From Arthrobacter zhaoxinii (lineage in GTDB: Bacteria; Actinomycetota; Actinomycetes; Actinomycetales; Micrococcaceae): a stretch of DNA of 64,000 nucleotides. The position numbers and the translations under genes are program-made. Positions 53,535 through 62,716 of the stretch are shown here, in pieces (position 1 is the first letter of the stretch; every line of letters begins with the position of its first letter). The DNA is taken from positions 558,001-622,000 of the forward strand of contig NZ_JANFLT010000001.1 of the NCBI RefSeq assembly GCF_024385505.1. Reading direction: 5' to 3'. The notes below the pieces were generated by a model. That model saw nothing but the letters and a program-made list of their open reading frames with translations, searched no databases and was not told where the DNA came from.

Positions 53535-54563
53535 TTAGACGCCGGAGTAGCTGTGCAGACCGGAGAAGAACATGTTTACGATCGTGAAGTTGAAGACCAC
53601 GCAGAGGTAGCCGACGATCGAAAGCCAGGCGGAACGGGTGCCCGTCCAGCCGCGGGTGGCACGGGCGTGCAGGTAGCCGGCGTAGACCACCCAGATGACG
53701 AAGGTCCACACTTCCTTGGTGTCCCAGCCCCAGTACCGGCCCCAGGCCTGTTCGGCCCAGATTGCTCCGGCCATGAGGGTGAAGGTCCACAGCACGAACG
53801 CCACGGCGTTGATCCGGTAGGACAGGTTCTCCAGGCTCTGTGCAGAGGGCACGATGCGCATGAACGGCAGCCGTTCCTTGCGGCCGGAGCGGATCCGGGT
53901 CTCCCGGTCCGCCTGCAGGAGCTGCAGCACGGACATGGCGAACGTCAGGGTGAACAGTGCCGAGGCGATCACGGCCACGGAGACGTGGATGATCAGCCAG
54001 TAGCTCTGGAGCGCGGGAACCAGGTGGGCCACCGGCGTCGGGAACCCGATGGTGGCGGCCATCATCATAACCAGCACCAGGCCGAGCACCACGGTGCCGA
54101 GGAACCGGAGGTCGCGGCGGGTCAGCACCAGCAGGAACACCACGGCGACAACGAGGGCGCCGGTGGTGCAGAACTCGTACATGTTGCCCCACGGAACCCG
54201 GTGGGCGGCCATGCCGCGGGTGATGACGCCCGCCGCGTGGATAGCGGCGGCGAGCACGGTCAGGGCCACACCCACCCGTGCTGCGTTGCGGCGCGGACCC
54301 GTGTAGCCCATGGCGCTGTCGGCGGTCTGTGCTTCCCGGCTGCCGTCCGCGTCCCAGTCCCGGGCCGAGCCGTTGCCGGCTCCGGCGGGGACGGTTTCCC
54401 GTACGGCGGTCTTTTCTTCGAGCCGGCTCTCCACCGCACGGATGGTTTTGCTGCTCTTGGCGAGGTCCCACGAGAAGGCCAGGAAGGCAATCGTGTAGGC
54501 AAAGGCCGCCAGCAGCATAAAGAGCTCGCTGTAACTGGCGAGGGTGTAATCGATGGAGGGCAT
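53535..54563 (-). CDS. ccsB: CcsB/ResC, cytochrome c heme-attachment protein
   Basis: System II cytochrome c synthase subunit that delivers heme across the membrane with ResB. The 342-residue protein has about eight helices and the tryptophan-rich heme motif WGRYWGWDTKEVWTFVIWVVY, plus conserved histidines in VPWGNMYEF region, IHVSVAVIASALF and YLHARATRGWTG. A soluble insert at about residues 35-95 separates helix 1 from helix 2. Its ATG shares a base with the resB TAA. Confidence 0.95.
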   Translation of the reverse strand: MPSIDYTLASYSELFMLLAAFAYTIAFLAFSWDLAKSSKTIRAVESRLEEKTAVRETVPAGAGNGSARDWDADGSREAQTADSAMGYTGPRRNAARVGVALTVLAAAIHAAGVITRGMAAHRVPWGNMYEFCTTGALVVAVVFLLVLTRRDLRFLGTVVLGLVLVMMMAATIGFPTPVAHLVPALQSYWLIIHVSVAVIASALFTLTFAMSVLQLLQADRETRIRSGRKERLPFMRIVPSAQSLENLSYRINAVAFVLWTFTLMAGAIWAEQAWGRYWGWDTKEVWTFVIWVVYAGYLHARATRGWTGTRSAWLSIVGYLCVVFNFTIVNMFFSGLHSYSGV

Positions 54564-56305
54564 TACCGGTCCTTACGTGGTTCTTCTGCGGCGCTGCTGT
54601 CCGCCGATGCGTTTGCGGGTACGCTGACCCGCCCAACATTGTGTGCCTGCGGGTCCTGAGGTGCCAACCACTTCGCGGCAAACAGCCCGCGGAGGGCAGC
54701 GGCTTCACTGGTGAGCCGGGGATCTTCGCCCCGGGCCAGGAGCCCGTATTCAACCATGACCCGGCCGTCCGGATGCTGGCCTGCCCGGACCCAGACCCGC
54801 CGGCGCGCCAGGAACAGCGACGCCGCGAGGCCGGAGAGGGCAAGCACCGCAAACACGAGGACACCGGTTTTCGCCGGGTCGTAGTGGATGTCCAGTGCGG
54901 CGTACCGCTTGAGGCCGTCGAAGGTGATTGAGCCCTTGCCGTCCGGCAGTTCGTAGGTCTCGTTGGCACCCAGGACAATGCCGCCGGCGTCGAGGTCGCG
55001 GTTGTTCAGCGGCGTCAGGTCTTCGGTCTCCAGCACATAGACGTTGGAGGGCACGCCTTCGTCCAGCCCCAGGTCTCCGAAGTAGGAGTTGAGGTTCAGC
55101 TGGGGGTTGATCGGATCGGGATCACCGGAGTAGCTGACCCCGGCGTCGTCGATCATGGCGGTGGGCAGGAAGAATCCGACGAACCCCAGCTGGTCGGGCT
55201 TGGCGTCCGGCGCCTTGATCACGGCGAGGGAGGTGTACATGGCATCGGTGGGCACCGCTACAACCGGGCCTTCCAGGGCGACGTTGCCCTCGCCGTCGCG
55301 CACGGTCACTACCGGGGCGTAGCCGTTGCCGACCAGGTACACCCGGGTGCCGCCCAGGGTCAGGGGTGAGTTGACCTTCAGGACCTGTTCCTCCGGCTCG
55401 GCGTCCGGGTCTTCCTTCACCGTCACATTGGCGGTGAAGTCCAGGGGCTGGCCGTAGTGGGTTTCGGATTCGCGGTCGAATTCAATGTCGAATTTATCCA
55501 GTGTCAGCGAGTACGGGCTCAGCTGGCTTTCGGAGAAGTTGGAGCCGGGAGTGAAGGTGTCATAGCTGACCAGGGTGTTGACGAAGGACTCCCCCTCCAC
55601 CACGATCTTCTGCCCGCTGTAGCCGAACAGCCCGCCCAGGGCCACGCAGGCCAGGACACCGATAAGGCTGGTGTGGAAGACCAGGTTGCCCAGTTCCTTG
55701 GCGAACCCGCGCTCGGCGCCGACGGAGGGGCGGTCACTGTCCACATCCCTGATATCCACACGGTAGCCGCGGCGGCGCAGGATCTTCGCGGCGTCCCGCA
55801 CGGCGTCCGCCGGGCTCAGCGACGCGTGTGCCGGAACTGCCAGCGTGCCGTATTCGGGCATCCGGGAAAGGCGGCTCGGCGTGCGCGGCGGCTTGGAGCG
55901 CATGGCCTTGTAGTGCGCCTTTGCCCGGGGAATAACGCAGCCGATCAGTGAGATGAACAGCAGCAGGTAGATGGCCGAGAACCAGACGGACGAGTACACG
56001 TCGAAGAGCTGGAAGCGGTCCAGCCACGGTCCTGTTTCGGGATTGTCCTTGAGGTACTGCGTCACCACCGAGGGATCGGCGGGGCGCTGCGGAAACAGTG
56101 ATCCCGGCACGGCGGCGACGGCGAGCAGCAGCAGCAGGAACAGCGCCGTCTTCATGCTGGTCAGCTGGTTCCAGGCCCAGCGCAGCGTGCCAAGCAGCCC
56201 CAGAGCGGGCAGCGCAACGTCGTCCCGGCGTCCCTTGGCGGGGCGGGGGTTGGACGGGCGGGGCTTAGTTGCTTTGTCTGTCACGTCATCCGGTTCCGGG
56301 GTCAA
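54563..56305 (-). CDS. resB: ResB, cytochrome c biogenesis protein
   Basis: Partner of CcsB in System II heme attachment. The 580-residue protein has an N-terminal soluble stretch, helices at about 50-68, 108-130 and 198-218, then a large extracytoplasmic domain and a final helix near 487-505, the usual ResB layout. LRWAWNQLTSMKTALFLLLLLAVAAVPGSLFPQR is typical. The start appears to be a TTG at 56305; no in-frame ATG or GTG lies between it and ccdA. Gap to ccdA is 40 bases. Confidence 0.92.
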   Translation of the reverse strand: MTPEPDDVTDKATKPRPSNPRPAKGRRDDVALPALGLLGTLRWAWNQLTSMKTALFLLLLLAVAAVPGSLFPQRPADPSVVTQYLKDNPETGPWLDRFQLFDVYSSVWFSAIYLLLFISLIGCVIPRAKAHYKAMRSKPPRTPSRLSRMPEYGTLAVPAHASLSPADAVRDAAKILRRRGYRVDIRDVDSDRPSVGAERGFAKELGNLVFHTSLIGVLACVALGGLFGYSGQKIVVEGESFVNTLVSYDTFTPGSNFSESQLSPYSLTLDKFDIEFDRESETHYGQPLDFTANVTVKEDPDAEPEEQVLKVNSPLTLGGTRVYLVGNGYAPVVTVRDGEGNVALEGPVVAVPTDAMYTSLAVIKAPDAKPDQLGFVGFFLPTAMIDDAGVSYSGDPDPINPQLNLNSYFGDLGLDEGVPSNVYVLETEDLTPLNNRDLDAGGIVLGANETYELPDGKGSITFDGLKRYAALDIHYDPAKTGVLVFAVLALSGLAASLFLARRRVWVRAGQHPDGRVMVEYGLLARGEDPRLTSEAAALRGLFAAKWLAPQDPQAHNVGRVSVPANASADSSAAEEPRKDR

Positions 56306-56345
56306 AGTTTTCTCATTGGTCGTGTGTTCTTCACTGGTTTCGGCA

Positions 56346-57143
56346 TCAGATCGGCAGGGTCACGTTACCCAACCAACCTTGGAGCTGGTTGATCCACAGG
56401 TTCCAGACTCCGCTGACCATCAGCAGGCCGAGGGCAATCAGCATGCCTCCGCCGAAACGCTGCAGTGCCAGCCGATGGCGGCGGAAGATGCCCAGGGCAC
56501 CCATTCCCCGGCGGAACCCGATGGCGATGAGCAGGAACGGCAGCCCCAGCCCGAGGCAGTACACGAAGGTCAGCAGTGCGCCCTTGGCGGCGCTGGCGTC
56601 GCTGCCGGAAAAGGAAAGCAGTTGGACGGCGGAGAGTGTGGGGCCGATGCACGGCGCCCAGCCCAGGCCGAAGGTGATGCCCAGCACCGGGGCACCCCAC
56701 AGTCCGGCCGGAGGCTTGGCTTCGATCTTGCGGTCCCGCTGGAACCAGCTCATGCCGCCCATAAAAACGATGCCGAGCAGGATCACGACGAGGCCGAGGG
56801 CCTGCGAGATCCAGGCCTGTTCGGAACCTTTCAGCCATGCGCCCAGCTGCCCGATTCCGGCGCCGAGCGCAACGAAGACCACGGAGAACCCCAGCACGAA
56901 CAGGCCGATACCCGCGAACATCCGGCCCCGGCGCTGCTTCTGCAGGTCAACACCGGTCAGTCCCGTGACGTAACCGAGGTAGCCCGGCACCAGGGGCAGC
57001 ACACAGGGGGAAAGGAAGGATACGAGCCCGGCCAGGGCCGCCACCGGGATGGCCAGCAGCACGGAGCCGTTGAGCACGGTGTCGGCAAACGTATTGGCAG
57101 TGGACTCGGCCACCGGGGCCACGACGGCGGGGAGGAAGGACAC
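56346..57143 (-). CDS. ccdA: CcdA-type thiol-disulfide transporter
   Basis: Membrane protein that carries reducing equivalents to the outer face for heme attachment. The 265-residue protein has six helices; the two reactive cysteines are in FLSPCVLPLVPGY and GLGWAPCIGPTLS. GTG start, five bases after the resA/tlpA stop. Second gene of the cytochrome c maturation operon. Confidence 0.95.
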   Translation of the reverse strand: MSFLPAVVAPVAESTANTFADTVLNGSVLLAIPVAALAGLVSFLSPCVLPLVPGYLGYVTGLTGVDLQKQRRGRMFAGIGLFVLGFSVVFVALGAGIGQLGAWLKGSEQAWISQALGLVVILLGIVFMGGMSWFQRDRKIEAKPPAGLWGAPVLGITFGLGWAPCIGPTLSAVQLLSFSGSDASAAKGALLTFVYCLGLGLPFLLIAIGFRRGMGALGIFRRHRLALQRFGGGMLIALGLLMVSGVWNLWINQLQGWLGNVTLPI

Positions 57144-57148
57144 TGTCC

Positions 57149-57784
57149 CTACGCTGCCAGCGCGTCGGTGATGAGGGCCTTCAAGGTGCCTTTGTCCGCC
57201 AGCCCGAGGATTCGGGCAGCCACGCGGCCCTGCCTGTCCAGCACGAGGGTTGTGGGTACGGCCGACGGCGGAACGAAGTTGGTCATGGCCAGCAGCACGC
57301 CGCCGTCCTTGTCCCGGAAGCTCGGGTACGGAATGTTGAAGTTCCGTTCGAACGCTTCGGCGGTTGCCTTCTCGTCCCGGATGTTCACGCCGTAGAAGCG
57401 CGCGCCGTCGCCGGCAAAGTCATCATGCAGCTCCACCAGGTCCGGGGCTTCCTTCCGGCAGGGAGCGCACGCGGCGTACCAGAAATTGAGCACGACGACG
57501 TCGCCGGCCCAGTCGGACGATGCCACCTCGGTGCCGTCGAACAGGGTTCCCGTGAGCTGCACGGCTTCGCCGCGCTCGGAGGGATCGTATTCGGTCACCG
57601 AGCCGTCTCCGGCAATGTAGTTCTTGTTGTCTCCTGCGTTTGCCTGCTCGGCCAGCGGGTCATCCGTGGAGCAGCCGGCAGCGGTTGCGGCAAAGGGGAC
57701 GGCGAGGGCCAGTCCGGCACCGAGCCGGAGGAAGGAGCGGCGGCCTAAGGACTCCGGTTCAGCAGGGCGTGGGCGGTTCTTCAA
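57149..57784 (-). CDS. resA: TlpA/ResA-like thioredoxin, Tat-type lipoprotein
   Basis: Extracytoplasmic thioredoxin that keeps apocytochrome cysteines reduced. Using a TTG start at 57784 the protein has 211 residues. The signal peptide has a twin-arginine motif GRRSFLRLGAG (Arg15-Arg16) and a lipobox TAAGC with Cys38. The thioredoxin active site is WYAACAPCRK. FVPPSAVPTTLVLDRQGRV supplies the cis-proline region. An upstream GTG in the same frame is the alternative start. First gene of the resA-ccdA-resB-ccsB operon. Confidence 0.88.
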   Translation of the reverse strand: MKNRPRPAEPESLGRRSFLRLGAGLALAVPFAATAAGCSTDDPLAEQANAGDNKNYIAGDGSVTEYDPSERGEAVQLTGTLFDGTEVASSDWAGDVVVLNFWYAACAPCRKEAPDLVELHDDFAGDGARFYGVNIRDEKATAEAFERNFNIPYPSFRDKDGGVLLAMTNFVPPSAVPTTLVLDRQGRVAARILGLADKGTLKALITDALAA

Positions 57785-57843
57785 GGATTTCCAGCTTTCA
57801 TCGCGGCAGGGAGAAGCCACTTCTACAACGCGTAGTAATTCTA

Positions 57844-58506
57844 TTATGCTCCCGGAACATTCGCTGCACCGGGGAGGAGGTCCTCGCTCGGCTCTGCGTA
57901 GCGCACGCCGGTGAGCACGGCGCCGTCGAACTCCAGGGTGGTGACGGAGGTGAGGGTGCACTCGCGCTGGCGGGGATCGTGCCAGAGCTTTTTACCCTCA
58001 GCTGCCAGCCGGGTGACCCAGATGGGCAGCTGGTGGCTGACCAGAACAGCTTCGGCGTTGTCTCCGCCAAGTTCCACGGCGCGCAGTCGTGCGTCGTCGA
58101 CGGCGGACATCACGCGGGCCACCTGCTTGGCATACGGCTCACCCCAGGACGGACGCATGGGATTGCGCAGGAGCGGCCAGTACCGCGGATTTCGCAGCTG
58201 GCTCTTGATGCGGGACATACCTTCAAAGCGGTTCTCCGCTTCGAGGATCCGCTCATCAGTGACGATTTCGAGGTTCAGTGCAGCTGCCAGCGGCGCCGCC
58301 GTTTCCTGGGCACGGGTCAGCGGAGACGCGACCAGGTAGACGAGATTGGCACCCTGACTGCGTTGTTCGACGAAGTGCTCCGCAACCCGGTCCGCCATCT
58401 GGCGTCCCAGGTCCGACAGATGGAACTCCGGGAGGCGGCCGTACAGAACCTTGTCGGGATTGAAGACTTCACCGTGGCGCACGAGGTGTATGGATGAGCG
58501 GGACAT
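57844..58506 (-). CDS. Histidine phosphatase (phosphoglycerate mutase-like)
   Basis: A 220-residue phosphatase: catalytic block IHLVRHGEVFNPDKVLYGRLPEF, second arginine in VASPLTRAQETAAPL, and late histidine in VLVSHQLPIWVTRLAAEG. This form is often found directly before actinobacterial cytochrome c maturation genes. Substrate unknown. ATG at 58506; the resA start is 59 bases downstream on the same strand, so cotranscription is likely. Confidence 0.88.
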   Translation of the reverse strand: MSRSSIHLVRHGEVFNPDKVLYGRLPEFHLSDLGRQMADRVAEHFVEQRSQGANLVYLVASPLTRAQETAAPLAAALNLEIVTDERILEAENRFEGMSRIKSQLRNPRYWPLLRNPMRPSWGEPYAKQVARVMSAVDDARLRAVELGGDNAEAVLVSHQLPIWVTRLAAEGKKLWHDPRQRECTLTSVTTLEFDGAVLTGVRYAEPSEDLLPGAANVPGA

Positions 58507-59410: not shown

Positions 59411-60130
59411 ATGAGTACACCAGAGAACACTCCCGAGCCAGGCCGCGACCCGAATTACCCGAATAATCCCCCGGTGCCCGGCGGCCCCGGGGCTCCCGGA
59501 GGTTCCGGGGCTCCCGGAGGTTCCGGGGCTCCCGGTGGTTCCGGGGCTCCCGGCGGCCCTGCTGATCCCGCGCCTCGACCGGTCCCCCAGTACGGCCAGT
59601 ACGCTCCAGGCCCCTACACCTCCGGCCAGGCCTCTGGCTCCGGATACGGATATCCGACGCCGCCCGTCAACCCTGCAAAGGGCGCCCCTCCGCGCGAGGT
59701 CGTCACCGGTTCGTGGCTGATCATCGCGGCAGGTGTGTTGAGCCTTATCAACAACGTGATCACGTCGTTCAGCCTTCCCTCCCTGCTGACGTCCCAGGAG
59801 CAGCAGACATTCAACGACGCCGGATTGGATGAACGGAGCGTGACCACCTTCCTTATTGCCTTCGGCATTGTCGTAGCCCTGATCAGCTTCGGAATCTACG
59901 TACTGATCGCGCTCTTTGTCCGGCGGGGCAAGAACTGGGCGCGTATCCTCGGCACCGTGTTTGCCGCCTTCTCGCTGATTGGCATCTTCACTATGCTCGG
60001 CGCCTACTTCACCTCACCGCTGAGCCTGATCTCGCTGGCTTCCAGCCTGCTGGGAATTGCGGGCATTGTGATGCTGTACCTGCAGCCGTCCAATCCGTAC
60101 TTCCGCAAGGCTCCGCTGTACCCCTACTAA
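59411..60130 (+). CDS. Four-helix membrane protein with Gly/Pro repeat N-terminus
   Basis: A 239-residue protein of unknown function. Residues 1-95 are disordered and include GAPGGS repeats and a Tyr/Pro/Gly-rich stretch (QYGQYAPGPYTSGQ). Four helices follow at about 100-118, 146-168, 176-199 and 203-222, ending LQPSNPYFRKAPLYPY. Such Pro/Gly-plus-four-helix proteins are common and uncharacterised in Micrococcaceae. The ATG at 59411 is chosen because the upstream part of the frame crosses the YceI terminator region; its ribosome-binding site is weak. Confidence 0.8.
   Translation: MSTPENTPEPGRDPNYPNNPPVPGGPGAPGGSGAPGGSGAPGGSGAPGGPADPAPRPVPQYGQYAPGPYTSGQASGSGYGYPTPPVNPAKGAPPREVVTGSWLIIAAGVLSLINNVITSFSLPSLLTSQEQQTFNDAGLDERSVTTFLIAFGIVVALISFGIYVLIALFVRRGKNWARILGTVFAAFSLIGIFTMLGAYFTSPLSLISLASSLLGIAGIVMLYLQPSNPYFRKAPLYPY
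59489..59560 (+). repeat. 18-bp tandem repeat encoding GAPGGS units
   Basis: Two identical 18-bp units, a third with one change and a fourth partial one. In frame, so copy-number change would only lengthen the linker. Confidence 0.88.
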
Positions 60131-60141
60131 GCAGGCCTACT

Positions 60142-60174
60142 GAGAAGTCCCGGCGGTATCCGCCGGGACTTCTC
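60142..60174. terminator. Perfect 15-bp hairpin
   Basis: 60142-60156 pairs with 60160-60174 around a three-base loop, 12 bases past the stop of the four-helix protein. There is no T-run on the plus strand, so termination would depend on the stem alone. Confidence 0.65.
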
Positions 60175-60308
60175 CCCTGCCGGGCCGGGTTCTGCGGAGT
60201 AGGGGTCACAGGCCGGTCTTGCCCGCGTAGCGTTGTGTTCTCTTCCGGCGATGGGTTGCTTCCGCAGGGCGCGCCGGAGGATGCCGTTCCGCCGTGAAGG
60301 GGAGGACC

Positions 60309-61961
60309 ATGGCCGCACTGCTTCCCAACCCGCCACACCAGAAGAAGCGTCTGCCGCTGCGCTATCTGCACCCATCAGCCGGTGCTCCGGGCAATGCCGG
60401 CATTTTGATTCCCGAACCGCCGGCGTATCCCCCGGCAATATCCGGGAGTACTACAGCATCCGGCGGTTCAGACGAAGCCAGCGCGCCTGCTACCGGCGCC
60501 GGGCCGGACAGCAGCAGGCATGCCGCCTACCTTTGGCTTCAGACGGGGCTGCGAGGTGCCTTCGCCTGGCTGGGGACAGGACTGCGAGGTGCCTTCGCCT
60601 GGCTGGGGACAGGACTGCGAGGTGCCTTCGCCTGGCTGGGCAGCGGGGCACGCGGCGTCTTCGCCTGGGTCCGTGCAGGGGCGCTGGGCACCTATGTCTG
60701 GGTCCGCAGTCTCGCTCACCGTACGTCCGATCACGTCCAATCCGGGGCGCATGCCGTCTCGCTGCAGGTCCAGGCCGGAGCTTCCGCGACGACAGCGGCA
60801 GCACACACCGGCGCTGTTCGGGTACGCAGCGGGGCGCACGCCGTCTCGCTAGGGGTCCAGGCCGGAGCCCGCACAACCTCCGCCGCAGCTCATGCCGGAG
60901 CCAACAGGGTTACCAACTGGGTCCGCACAGCGACCCGCACCGTCTGGAGTTGGATCCAGGCCGCCGCACACGCCGTATCGAAAGCTGCGCGGACCGTGGC
61001 GCACGCCGTCGTTATCTCCGCCCAGGCCACCGCACACGCCACCGCCGTCGCAGCCCGCACCACAGCGCACGCCGTTTCAGTTTCCGCTCAAGCTGTCGCG
61101 CACGCCGTATCGAAAGCTGCGCGGACCGTGGCGCACGCCGTCGTTATCTCCGCCCAGGCCACCGCACACGCCACCGCCGTCGGGACCCGCACCACAGCCC
61201 ACGCCGTCGTCATCTCCGCCCAAACGACCGCGCACGCCACCGCCGTCGGAACCCGCACCACAGCCCACGCCGTTTCAGTCTCCGCCCAAGCCACCGCGCA
61301 CGCCGTATTCATCGCGGCCCGCAGCACGGCACACTTCGTATGGGTCGTAGTTCGCACTGTCGCCCGCATCATTGCATTTACTGTTCGTATCAGTGCACGC
61401 GCCGCCACTATGCTGGTCCGCGCTGTCCAGCGTCATCTGCCGGCAAACACCGGCAATCCCGTTCCTGCCATAGCTGCCGCTTGTGCCTTGATCGCAGGTT
61501 CCGGGCTGGTCAATCTTGGCGGCACTCTCTCTACGGTTTCCCGCATGGCCGTACCCGAGTCGCTGCCGCCGATGCTGGTGCTCCTCGAACGATACGGAGT
61601 CACCGGCACCCACTATGCCAGGACCATCGCCGCCATCGAGATCGCGTATGCCCTGGTGATCCTCGGAATTGCACTACTGCTTGCGGTTACCCTCCGGGAC
61701 AAGCGCCGCTGGGCGCGGATCGTCTCGGCACTGCTTGCGGGAGCAGCCCTCTTCTATGCGCTCAATGCGGGAACGGGGACCCAGGCAGCGGCTGCAGCCC
61801 TCGCCGCGGCAGGAGCCGGCATCACCTTTACCAAGGGAGCAGCGCCGTGGTTCCGCCGGCGGACCTACGAAAGCGAACCGGTCCCGGACGAGCCGGTCCC
61901 GGACGAGCCTTTCCAGACGGATCAGATCCCGGCCGAGCTGCTCCGGGCAGATCGGTCCTAG
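60309..61961 (+). CDS. Hendecad-repeat protein with C-terminal membrane domain, unknown function
   Basis: A 550-residue protein I do not recognise. Residues 1-78 are Pro/Ser/Ala-rich. Residues 80-372 consist of about 26 consecutive 11-residue repeats: three near-identical GLRGAFAWLGT units, several divergent ones, one 7-residue skip (GAVRVRS at 168-174), then a regular series of the form AHAVxxxAxxx. Twelve histidines fall exactly 11 residues apart (221 to 342). Eleven residues are almost three helical turns, so a very long helix with a slowly turning stripe is expected. Three or four membrane helices follow at about 386-404, 437-462, 470-488 and 491-508, then an acidic tail with a VPDEP repeat. 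GGGGAGG precedes the ATG. Convergent with rex, sharing four bases. Confidence 0.8.
   Translation: MAALLPNPPHQKKRLPLRYLHPSAGAPGNAGILIPEPPAYPPAISGSTTASGGSDEASAPATGAGPDSSRHAAYLWLQTGLRGAFAWLGTGLRGAFAWLGTGLRGAFAWLGSGARGVFAWVRAGALGTYVWVRSLAHRTSDHVQSGAHAVSLQVQAGASATTAAAHTGAVRVRSGAHAVSLGVQAGARTTSAAAHAGANRVTNWVRTATRTVWSWIQAAAHAVSKAARTVAHAVVISAQATAHATAVAARTTAHAVSVSAQAVAHAVSKAARTVAHAVVISAQATAHATAVGTRTTAHAVVISAQTTAHATAVGTRTTAHAVSVSAQATAHAVFIAARSTAHFVWVVVRTVARIIAFTVRISARAATMLVRAVQRHLPANTGNPVPAIAAACALIAGSGLVNLGGTLSTVSRMAVPESLPPMLVLLERYGVTGTHYARTIAAIEIAYALVILGIALLLAVTLRDKRRWARIVSALLAGAALFYALNAGTGTQAAAAALAAAGAGITFTKGAAPWFRRRTYESEPVPDEPVPDEPFQTDQIPAELLRADRS
60549..61410 (+). repeat. 33-bp repeat array inside the hendecad-repeat gene
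   Basis: Three near-identical 33-bp units start at 60549, 60582 and 60615. An 82-bp block at 60969-61050 recurs exactly at 61101-61182, a shift of 132 bp or four units. Other units are diverged. The period equals 11 codons, so growth by unit duplication is in frame. Confidence 0.9.
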
Positions 61962-62716
61962 CGAGCCAGGCGTGCCCGGGCGGCAATCTGCGACGCCTGG
62001 GCACGCTGTGCGTGGTACGCCAGGATCTGGAGTTCGGTTGCCATGTCCACCTTGCGGATCTGGACATCCTCCGGCGCCTGGAGCACCACGGGGGCAAAGT
62101 TCAGGATGCTGGTTATGCCACACTCCACGAGTCGGTCGCATAGGTCCTGGGCCACCTCGGCAGGCACCGAGAGCACAGCCATGTTCGCCCTCGTCTTTGC
62201 CAGTACATCCTCCAGCGAGTCCGCCGGGCTGATCCTCAGCCAGCCCACCTCCTGGCCGATCACCATCGGGTCGGCGTCCAACAGTGCCACCACCTCGAAG
62301 CCCCGGGAGCCGAAACCGGGATAGCCTGCCAGCGCCCGGCCCAGGTTGCCTGCACCGACTATGGCCACCCGCCAGTTCAAGGTCAGGCCAAGCGCGGCGG
62401 AAATCTGTCCGCTGAGATACAGGACGTCATACCCCACCCCCCGGGTCCCGTACGACCCCAGGTAGGACAGGTCCTTCCGGAGTTTGGGCGAATTCACGCC
62501 GGCGGCTTCGGCAAGCTCCTCCGAGGACACCCGCTCTCTGCCGTCACTGAGCATGGCGGTCAGCGCACGGAGGTATATGGGCAGGCGGGCCAACGACGCC
62601 GGCGGTATATGCCGCTGGGCAGCGGCACCTGCCGCCGGGGTTCCGGCAGGTGATTCGCCGTTCTCGGTTTCCCGCTCCAGCTCCGTGGGCTTTGAACGGA
62701 TCTCGTCGGGTACCAT
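61958..62716 (-). CDS. rex: Rex, redox-sensing transcriptional repressor
   Basis: Winged-helix repressor that senses the NADH/NAD+ ratio and controls respiratory genes. The 252-residue protein shows the DNA-binding part LPIYLRALTAML to SPKLRKDLSYLGSYGTRGVGYDV and a Rossmann fold VAIVGAGNLGRALAGYPGF, with ALLDADP. The ATG overlaps the stop of the glutaredoxin-like gene as TAATG. The hemA gene that often follows rex in actinobacteria is absent here. Confidence 0.95.
   Translation of the reverse strand: MVPDEIRSKPTELERETENGESPAGTPAAGAAAQRHIPPASLARLPIYLRALTAMLSDGRERVSSEELAEAAGVNSPKLRKDLSYLGSYGTRGVGYDVLYLSGQISAALGLTLNWRVAIVGAGNLGRALAGYPGFGSRGFEVVALLDADPMVIGQEVGWLRISPADSLEDVLAKTRANMAVLSVPAEVAQDLCDRLVECGITSILNFAPVVLQAPEDVQIRKVDMATELQILAYHAQRAQASQIAARARLAR

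What the first reader, a model, noticed from the sequence alone, without database searches (positions are those of the whole stretch)
60309..61961. A long hendecad-repeat helix fused to a membrane domain
About 26 successive 11-residue units run from residue 80 to 372, with twelve histidines spaced exactly 11 apart (221-342), followed by three or four membrane helices. The 11-residue period is seen directly. Hendecads are known from right-handed coiled coils and lipid-surface helices (apolipoproteins, alpha-synuclein, some lipid-droplet proteins). The stripe here is almost uncharged (Ala, Val, Thr, Ser, His with scattered Arg), so a membrane- or droplet-surface helix, or a pH- or metal-sensitive His stripe, is my inference. 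I know no described protein with this architecture.
Basis: partly seen in the sequence, partly recalled or inferred. Interest (0 to 1): 0.8.

Follow-up and report, generated by a model that had tools for sequence, protein, structure and literature searches.

The report
Long hendecad helix on membrane protein
One branch of the bacterial genus Arthrobacter carries, in a small and otherwise ordinary membrane protein, an inserted helix of roughly 300 residues made of repeated 11-residue units, positively charged and nearly free of acidic residues; it may lie along the inside of the cell membrane, but its job is untested.

Summary
The gene (60309-61961, 550 aa) carries 27 hendecads over residues 68-371, with one 7-residue interruption and twelve histidines exactly 11 apart, then a membrane domain of probably four helices. 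Relatives show its origin: of 29 genomes of the genus, 12, one clade, carry the array; 16 of the other 17 have a readable array-free ortholog in the same neighbourhood. Limited searches found no array outside the genus. Across 12 species the period is kept; acidic residues number 0-4 and prolines 0-1 per array (18-28 and 27-39 expected from codon composition); 28 of 29 interruptions are 4, 7 or 14 residues. AlphaFold on the array alone gives helix, but confidently in one of five models. The exact histidine run is not conserved (2-12); the conserved feature is a narrow Arg/Gln plus His/Arg stripe. Only the Trp block is clearly amphipathic; the middle and His blocks are not. Best reading (0.42): a cationic 3-11 helix tethered to the cytoplasmic leaflet, working somewhat like a perilipin-4 or apolipoprotein helix without being one. 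Lipid-droplet and metal/pH readings gain no support here.

The parts
60309..61961 (+). whole gene: hendecad-array membrane protein, 550 aa
   Evidence: start chosen by the Shine-Dalgarno at 60297-60305 and by the MAALLPNP start found in 9 of the 11 array-bearing relatives (MASLLPNR in G016; VAALLPNP behind another start codon in G017)
60297..60305 (+). Shine-Dalgarno AAGGGGAGG
   Evidence: read from sequence; AAGGGGANGACC precedes the start in 4 of 4 named relatives L081-L084
60309..60509 (+). Pro-rich N-terminal tail, residues 1-67
   Evidence: 19% Pro in residues 1-69
60510..60716 (+). Trp block, residues 68-136: hendecads of type TGLRGAFAWLG, amphipathic
   Evidence: 88 units with Trp at position 9 in 12 species, a class that includes some Trp units further along the arrays
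60717..60947 (+). middle block, residues 137-213, hendecads with a 7-residue interruption
60783..60803 (+). 7-residue interruption AGASATT, residues 159-165; the AlphaFold helix is broken at 160-166
60942..60956 (+). V/F-W-x-W-I/M motif at the border of middle and His blocks, residues 212-216 (9 of 12 species, one of them with Gly for the first Trp)
60948..61343 (+). His block, residues 214-345, mostly alternating ..R / ..Q hendecads with 12 His spaced 11 apart
61344..61439 (+). hydrophobic, Arg-rich pre-membrane hendecads, residues 346-377
61440..61862 (+). C-terminal membrane domain, residues 378-518, probably four helices
61863..61958 (+). acidic/Pro C-terminal tail
59411..60130 (+). upstream neighbour: membrane-protein paralogue of the C-terminal domain with a Gly/Pro-rich tail
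60142..60174 (+). perfect 15-bp hairpin with 3-nt loop between the two genes; no U tract and not listed by the terminator scan
   Evidence: z -5.0, 0 of 200 shuffles fold as well

Best explanation
A small membrane protein, probably of four helices, whose cytoplasmic N-terminal tail has in one Arthrobacter clade been replaced or extended by a tandemly expanded 3-11 (hendecad) alpha-helix of 240-399 residues (about 45 nm for the window's 304 residues if continuous, at 1.5 A per residue). The helix is anchored at its C-terminal end by the membrane domain and at its N-terminal end by the Trp-rich amphipathic block, and lies along the anionic inner leaflet with its Arg/His/Gln stripe facing head groups. 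The small Ala/Gly/Thr/Val faces would let neighbouring helices pack side by side. It would work like a perilipin-4 or apolipoprotein helix: many weak hendecads adding up to a stable, length-tunable membrane coat or tether. SHOWN: array, period, mostly helix-compatible interruptions, lack of Pro and acidic residues, restriction to one clade, constraint on the frame. INFERRED: cytoplasmic side (positive-inside rule), membrane-surface position, side-by-side packing, role in shaping or stabilising the membrane.
For: Period and phase: lag-11 identity 10.6-24.1 SD above shuffles in 12 of 12 species; the periodicity of Arg/Lys/His/Gln peaks at 98.25-99.0 degrees (3-11 helix = 98.2) in the helix band in 12 of 12, although in G027 the overall peak lies at 162 degrees. 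Of 341 junctions between successive units 312 are seamless; the other 29 are gaps of 7 (25), 4 (2), 14 (1) and 3 (1) residues. Composition control: D/E 0-4 per array against 18-28 expected from codon positions 1 and 2, below the lowest of 1000 shuffles in 12 of 12; Pro 0-1 against 27-39 expected (no shuffles made for Pro). Arg+Lys is 26-37 per array whatever its length, 240-399 aa. AlphaFold on the array alone, best model: two helices covering 301 of 310 residues, pLDDT 80. Whole-array moment 0.192 against shuffles 0.149 +- 0.017; three of five relatives tested exceed shuffles clearly (G018, G009, G017), G016 slightly. Trp block: moment 0.313, interfacial sum -13 kcal/mol; on the 3-11 wheel its hydrophobic arc is bounded by Trp (position 9) and Tyr/Phe (position 7). 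Membrane domain flanked by RAVQRHLP, RDKRRWAR and APWFRRR, which puts both ends inside if there are four helices. A helix with about 30 positive and almost no negative charges suggests an anionic partner surface (inference).
Against: The middle and His blocks, together about two thirds of the array, are no more amphipathic than shuffled sequence (0.130 vs 0.131 +- 0.032; 0.122 vs 0.125 +- 0.022), and G027's array is hardly above shuffles (0.158 vs 0.144 +- 0.018). Interfacial sums without a helix-folding term are unfavourable for the middle, His and pre-membrane blocks (+12.6, +18.0, +4.3 kcal/mol); they turn favourable only with an assumed -0.4 per residue. Only one of five AlphaFold models of the array was confident (80.0; the others 52.4, 50.5, 49.4, 36.3), and the full-length model had pLDDT 38. 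Two of the four membrane helices are not called by hydropathy, so topology rests on homology. Neighbouring genes recognised by Pfam (YceI, a Rex-like regulator's domains, HAD hydrolase, cytochrome c biogenesis proteins) point to no membrane-shaping pathway. The gaps are partly shared by descent and duplication, so the 29 are not independent events. Units were found with a model trained on this family, so position frequencies are somewhat self-reinforcing; autocorrelation and periodogram are free of that. Perilipin 4 lost droplet targeting almost wholly when its Lys were changed to Arg (PMC8064757, passage), while this array's basic residues are mostly Arg, so the likeness has a limit.
Confidence: 0.42

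Rival explanations
1. Rigid rod or oligomeric coiled coil: the hendecads form a straight or right-handed helical bundle (core positions 3, 6, 7, 10 = a, d, e, h; small Ala/Val/Thr/Ser) that projects from the membrane into the cytoplasm as a stalk or spacer.
For: In 265 non-Trp units R/K/H/Q/N/D/E occur 0, 0, 8 and 0 times at positions 3, 6, 7 and 10, but 258 and 256 times at positions 4 and 11: a regular hendecad register. Middle and His blocks are not surface-amphipathic.
Against: Few acidic residues (0-4), so hardly any inter-helix salt bridges and about 30 like charges per chain. Position 8, on the polar side, is as hydrophobic as the core (mean 0.75; positions 6 and 10: 0.69, 0.66). No terminal cargo domain: a short Pro-rich tail precedes the array.
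Confidence: 0.22
2. Nearly neutral repeat expansion in a linker: the segment between start and membrane domain is hypervariable in this family, and a 33/66/132-bp unit happened to expand in one clade with little specific function.
For: The tail differs widely: Pro-rich in sister species, acidic Pro/Glu repeats in G019, YGQ repeats in some other genera. Units within one array differ with pN/pS 0.35-0.99, near 1 in G027 (0.99), G016 (0.87) and G026 (0.84), although only units of the standard type were compared, which lowers pN. DNA-level tandem copies are present.
Against: Between species the array dN/dS is 0.18-0.36 in five of six pairs and 0.50 in G020/G021, with third-position excess in six of six; the N-tail of the same genes gives 0.36-1.06. 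Pro and acidic residues are nearly excluded in all 12 species and helical phase is mostly kept through insertions.
Confidence: 0.16
3. Desiccation or freeze protectant: an LEA-like 11-mer helix that folds on membranes when water is lost, tethered where it is needed.
For: 11-residue Ala/Thr-rich repeats; the unit TTAHATAVGAR superficially resembles the LEA group 3 unit (recalled, not tested by alignment).
Against: LEA units are rich in Lys/Glu and hydrophilic (recalled); here acids are 0-4 per array and GRAVY is -0.31 to +0.54. No LEA model was returned at E<=10 for the window protein or four relatives, though the filters drop most weak hits.
Confidence: 0.07
4. Binding of another polyanion (nucleoid DNA, RNA, polyphosphate, teichoic-acid precursor) to the membrane by the cationic stripe.
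For: 26-37 Arg/Lys per array, few acids, little changed by array length.
Against: Low charge density, about one Arg/Lys per 8-13 residues (from the counts); position 11 is Gln in 27% of units.
Confidence: 0.08
5. Lipid-droplet coat, as perilipin 4, on neutral-lipid inclusions.
For: Long, weakly amphipathic 11-mer arrays are described for Plin4 (PMC5889406, passages read); other actinobacteria have lipid inclusions whose proteins often carry predicted amphipathic helices (PMC10699116, passages read, which does not mention Arthrobacter).
Against: A polytopic membrane domain is hard to place on a monolayer-bounded droplet (inference); Plin4 uses both charge signs and almost lost targeting on Lys-to-Arg change (passages), while this array's charges are nearly all Arg; I recognised no neutral-lipid gene among the frames, but made no search for one.
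Confidence: 0.03
6. Ice binding: Thr/Ala faces at 11-residue spacing as in type I fish antifreeze proteins.
For: Type I antifreeze helices have 11-residue repeats with Thr and Ala 16.5 A apart (PMC5304152, passages read); positions 2, 6, 10 and 3 here are largely Thr/Val/Gly/Ala.
Against: Predicted cytoplasmic; Thr not invariant (position 2 is Gly 34%, Thr 30% in 270 non-Trp units); no ice-related gene recognised nearby.
Confidence: 0.02

Closest known systems
Perilipin 4 giant amphipathic helix (human)
   Same: Hundreds of residues of tandem 11-mers, lacking bulky hydrophobics, plotted as a 3-11 helix (PMC5889406 passages; PMC8064757 abstract)
   Different: No perilipin profile hit; here almost only basic charge (mostly Arg), a Trp block, 4- and 7-residue interruptions (Plin4's 33-mers have none), and a fused membrane domain. 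Published Plin4 values: moment 0.257, hydrophobic 0.35, charged 0.15; here 0.192, 0.54, 0.094 over residues 70-377 (22-residue windows, so only roughly comparable)
Exchangeable apolipoproteins (Pfam PF01442) and apolipophorin III (PF07464)
   Same: Tandem 11/22-residue helical repeats; lag-22 identity slightly exceeds lag 11 here
   Different: Matches only far below cut-off (PF01442 best 13.2 of 90 bits, PF07464 13.4 of 36.3; none for the window protein); acidic residues nearly missing; membrane-anchored
Hendecad coiled coils (right-handed)
   Same: Regular a, d, e, h register with small residues
   Different: Almost no acidic residues to pair with the basic stripe; polarity confined mainly to two of 11 positions
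Small actinobacterial membrane proteins near DUF6264 (PF19779) and DUF7144 (PF23636)
   Same: One short ortholog tested (G003; DUF6264, E 3e-5, 24.7 bits) and the upstream neighbour (DUF7144, E 4e-5, 24.2 bits) match below cut-off; the C-terminal domain is homologous to both kinds of protein
   Different: No hendecad array; the tails seen are Pro-, Gly- or Gln-rich
Type I antifreeze proteins
   Same: 11-residue Ala/Thr helix (PMC5304152, passages)
   Different: Short fish plasma proteins; no sequence link tested; here a basic stripe and a membrane domain

Membership tests
Apolipoprotein A1/A4/E domain (PF01442) | Profile score above the Pfam cut-off of 90 bits | tested here: not met
   No hit for the window protein at E<=10; three of four relatives 8.5-13.2 bits, one none
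Apolipoprotein A1/A4/E domain (PF01442) | 11/22-residue helical repeats | tested here: met
Perilipin family | Match to a perilipin profile | tested here: not met
   No perilipin model among hits at E<=10 for the window protein and four relatives
Perilipin family | Binding to lipid droplets | not testable with these tools
   needs localisation
LEA group 3/4 proteins | Hydrophilic Lys/Glu-rich 11-mers; LEA profile match (features recalled) | tested here: not met
   Acidic residues 0-4 per array; no LEA hit
Type I antifreeze protein | Regular Thr every 11 residues on an Ala-rich face | tested here: inconclusive
   Thr/Ala/Val face present but Thr not invariant
Hendecad coiled coil | a/d/e/h apolar register with 11-residue period | tested here: met
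Hendecad coiled coil | Oligomerisation | not testable with these tools
   no multimer prediction or experiment available
DUF6264 / DUF7144 membrane proteins (C-terminal domain only) | Score above the Pfam cut-off | tested here: not met
   C-domain of the window protein: neither in its hit list; one short ortholog 24.7 of 31 bits (DUF6264); neighbour 24.2 of 27 bits (DUF7144)
Family of the locus YceI - membrane paralogue - [gene] - Rex-like (defined here) | Same locus and homologous C-terminal domain | tested here: met
   profile comparison of 10 array-type and 7 array-free C-domains: probability 99.4, E 5.3e-22

The most novel reading that the evidence does not exclude
The array is a bacterial under-membrane coat: about 45-nm cationic helices, pinned at both ends to the inner leaflet and packed side by side through their Ala/Gly/Thr faces, that form a length-tunable raft or lamina. 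It arose by repeat expansion in one Arthrobacter clade and is convergent with perilipin-4 coats.
Probability: 0.12. Interest if true: 0.75.

Novelty: new variant of a known kind. Interest (0 to 1): 0.5.

Why it matters
A giant hendecad helix is confined to a single clade, with the array-free ortholog still present at the same locus in sister species and array lengths of 19 to 35 units among the 12 carriers. That makes the birth and growth of a lipid-surface or coiled-coil repeat testable by comparison and by deletion. If the membrane-coat reading is right, it would be a bacterial, polytopic counterpart of the perilipin/apolipoprotein helices. If not, it is still a natural series for studying how a disordered linker becomes a long helix.

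Tried and rejected
Alternative frame: the 636-aa overlapping ORF was rejected on third-position bias between species; base composition by codon position alone did not decide it. His stripe as metal or pH sensor: rejected as a conserved feature. Known families: no Pfam hit at E<=10 for the window protein; NCBIfam only TcpD_dom, 13.7 bits against a cut-off of 24. The C-domain alone gave ten weak Pfam hits, the best CcmD at E 0.01, all below cut-off. No PDB sequence match at E<=10.

Whole-protein structure prediction with five aligned sequences failed (pLDDT 38); the array alone gave a usable model in one of five. No fold search was run, because a single long helix matches any helical rod. PHROGs and PADLOC were not scanned.

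Wider searches for the array with one query matched only the window's own genome among 347 order-level and 396 phylum-level genomes (neither draw held another array genome among the rows listed), and nothing in 72,556 plasmid or 50,697 phage records. These are single-sequence searches with few scored candidates per genome, so a diverged array could be missed. The named-genome scan returned 4 loci only. Promoter scan: 0 found; the terminator scan did not list the 60142-60174 hairpin. Paper searches: 'Arthrobacter' with 'hendecad' gave 0 papers; of the general hendecad searches (11 and 4 papers) I read only titles and starts of abstracts, and saw no protein of this architecture. The apolipoprotein/TadA search held 28 papers, of which 8 were listed; the antifreeze search held 14, 8 listed.

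Full report
WHAT IS THERE. The gene runs from 60309 to 61961 on the + strand and encodes 550 residues, behind a Shine-Dalgarno AAGGGGAGG. Residues 1-67 are a Pro-rich tail; residues 68-371 hold 27 hendecads with one 7-residue interruption at 159-165; residues 378-518 are a membrane domain; an acidic/Pro tail ends the protein. Lag-11 identity is 0.436 against 0.131 +- 0.018 for shuffles, and lag 22 is 0.464. Twelve His stand exactly 11 apart at 221-342. The array has three textures: a Trp block (TGLRGAFAWLG type), a middle block, and a His block of mostly alternating ...R and ...Q units, with a W-x-W motif at the border of the last two (9 of 12 species) and hydrophobic Arg-rich units before the membrane.

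CODING AND CONSTRAINT. In six species pairs the array's dN/dS is 0.25, 0.18, 0.50, 0.27, 0.25 and 0.36, and third-position differences are the most frequent in each. This fixes the frame against the longer overlapping ORF. In the same pairs the N-tail gives 0.36-1.06 and the C-domain 0.16-0.89, the extremes resting on few changes. Array dS exceeds C-domain dS in every pair, as expected if shuffled or converted units are aligned to one another, so array values are rough. Units within one array are less constrained (pN/pS 0.35-0.99), as expected if only residue class per position matters; the high values in three species are also what a neutral reading predicts.

RELATIVES. A search of the 29 held genomes of the genus finds the C-terminal domain in 29 of 29. 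The genus is taken to be Arthrobacter from four loci whose gene is identical in sequence to that of named records: Arthrobacter sp. zg-Y238, zg-Y769, zg-Y844 and A. yangruifuii 785. YceI, the membrane neighbour, Rex-like and HAD genes lie around it in all 28 other genomes fetched (in G023, G005, G001, G015, G006 and G014 the gene itself gave no tblastn hit in that call; an array-free ortholog was then read for five of them, and a broken frame for G023). Pfam supports the names in the window: YceI, E 1.5e-49; for the convergent gene Put_DNA-bind_N and CoA_binding, the domain pair I know (recalled) from Rex; HAD, E 1.6e-26. Twelve of 29 genomes have the array (own, G028, G026, G018, G009, G010, G022, G020, G021, G017, G027, G016). 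Sixteen of the other 17 have a readable ortholog without it: 217-320 aa in 14, 447 aa with acidic Pro/Glu repeats in G019, 419 aa in G014; lag-11 identity 0.07-0.12 in all 16. In a FastTree tree of YceI, SerB-like and Rex-like proteins the branch separating the 12 from the 17 has support 1.000, and the 12 are one clade when midpoint-rooted. The root was not tested otherwise, so loss in an ancestor of the others is not excluded.

DISTRIBUTION. With the first 378 residues as query, 10 of 295 family genomes match at E<=1e-6, all in this genus, 1 of 32 genera (the other two array genomes, G022 and G026, are not among the 24 same-genus rows listed). With a profile of the C-domain, 60 of 295 match at E<=0.001, in 13 of 32 genera; these include neighbour-type paralogues. 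Six such relatives from other genera, of those listed without loci, were read stop to stop: three have YGQ repeats in their tails, the others Pro/Gly/Gln-rich ones, none hendecads (lag-11 0.07-0.11). Order- and phylum-level searches with the array matched only the window's own genome (347 and 396 genomes at E<=1e-5); plasmids and phages gave none. The C-domain profile matches the array-free orthologs' domain (probability 99.4, E 5.3e-22, 44% identity) better than the neighbour's (96.4, E 1.4e-9, 23%), so with the shared place this gene is best read as ortholog of the array-free gene, and the neighbour as an older paralogue.

WHY A HELIX. (a) The periodicity of Arg/Lys/His/Gln peaks at 98.25-99.0 degrees in the helix band in 12 of 12 species, and this is the overall peak in 11 of 12 (G027: 162 degrees). 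(b) Of 341 junctions 312 are seamless; 29 gaps are 7 (25), 4 (2), 14 (1) or 3 (1) residues long. Steps of 4 and 7 roughly keep helix phase; many gaps are shared by descent. (c) Pro is 0-1 per array against 27-39 expected from codon-position composition. (d) AlphaFold on residues 68-377 alone gives two helices, 69-159 and 167-376, the break overlapping the 7-residue interruption, pLDDT 80; but four of five models were at 36-52, and the full-length model is unusable.

WHAT THE STRIPE IS. In 265 non-Trp units R/K/H/Q/N/D/E stand at positions 4 and 11, neighbours on the 3-11 wheel, in 258 and 256; at positions 2, 3, 6 and 10 in 1, 0, 0 and 0. Position 4 is His 60%, Arg 23%; position 11 Arg 54%, Gln 27% over 358 units, five of which lie in the tails before the first Trp unit. 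Acidic residues are 0-4 per array against 18-28 expected, lower than every one of 1000 shuffles in 12 of 12. Arg+Lys is 26-37 whether the array is 240 or 399 residues long. The exact His run varies from 2 to 12. The conserved thing is a narrow basic/polar stripe on an otherwise small, apolar helix.

MECHANISM. The Trp block is amphipathic (moment 0.313 vs 0.184 +- 0.051), with Trp and Tyr/Phe at the two edges of its hydrophobic arc and a favourable interfacial sum; the pre-membrane block is suggestive (0.350 vs 0.189 +- 0.096); the middle and His blocks are not amphipathic (0.130 vs 0.131; 0.122 vs 0.125). Over whole arrays the moment is above shuffles in own, G018, G009 and G017, slightly in G016, hardly in G027 (the other six species were not tested). 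Positive charges beside the membrane helices place array and C-terminus in the cytoplasm if there are four helices (two are weak by hydropathy). A chain with about 30 positive and almost no negative charges suggests a negative partner, and the inner leaflet is the nearest. I therefore favour a helix pinned to the inner leaflet at both ends, with weak middle and His blocks between, possibly packed side by side. Plin4 shows that long, weak hendecads can coat a lipid surface by length and lateral contacts (PMC5889406, passages; PMC8064757, abstract and passages), though it does so with both charge signs and almost loses droplet targeting when Lys becomes Arg. This is likeness, not membership: no perilipin or apolipoprotein profile is met. 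The rod, neutral-linker, protectant, polyanion, droplet and ice readings are weighed in their own sections.

LIMITS. No function is shown. Topology, lipid binding and packing are inferred. Position statistics use units found with a model trained on the same family. Expectations for D/E and Pro treat codon positions as independent. Genomes are mostly one per species, so within-species variation is seen only in own vs G028 (27 vs 33 units).

Noticed in passing
60142-60174: Perfect 15-bp, 3-nt-loop hairpin between the neighbour gene and this gene, without a U tract (not listed by the terminator scan); may separate transcription units.
   Followed up: partly
59411-60130: The upstream neighbour is a paralogue of the C-terminal domain with its own Gly/Pro/Ser repeat tail (repeats at 59477-59559).
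   Followed up: partly
L047 (G019), ortholog between the membrane neighbour and the Rex-like gene: This sister species carries a different insert at the same place: acidic Pro/Glu/Ala/Thr repeats, 447 aa.
   Followed up: no
L044 (G023): The array-free ortholog is frame-broken in this assembly.
   Followed up: no
L119, L120, L121: C-domain relatives in other genera carry tails with YGQ repeats; tails of this membrane-protein family look like a hotspot for repeat invention.
   Followed up: partly
60233-62143: A second, Arg-rich frame on the same strand stays open for 636 codons across the array, whose DNA repeats in multiples of 33 bases; probably a by-product.
   Followed up: yes
54563-57961, minus strand: Cytochrome c maturation cluster: ResB (E 2.9e-144), DsbD-type transmembrane protein (5e-14) and an AhpC/TSA-Redoxin thioredoxin-like protein (2.1e-19).
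   Followed up: partly
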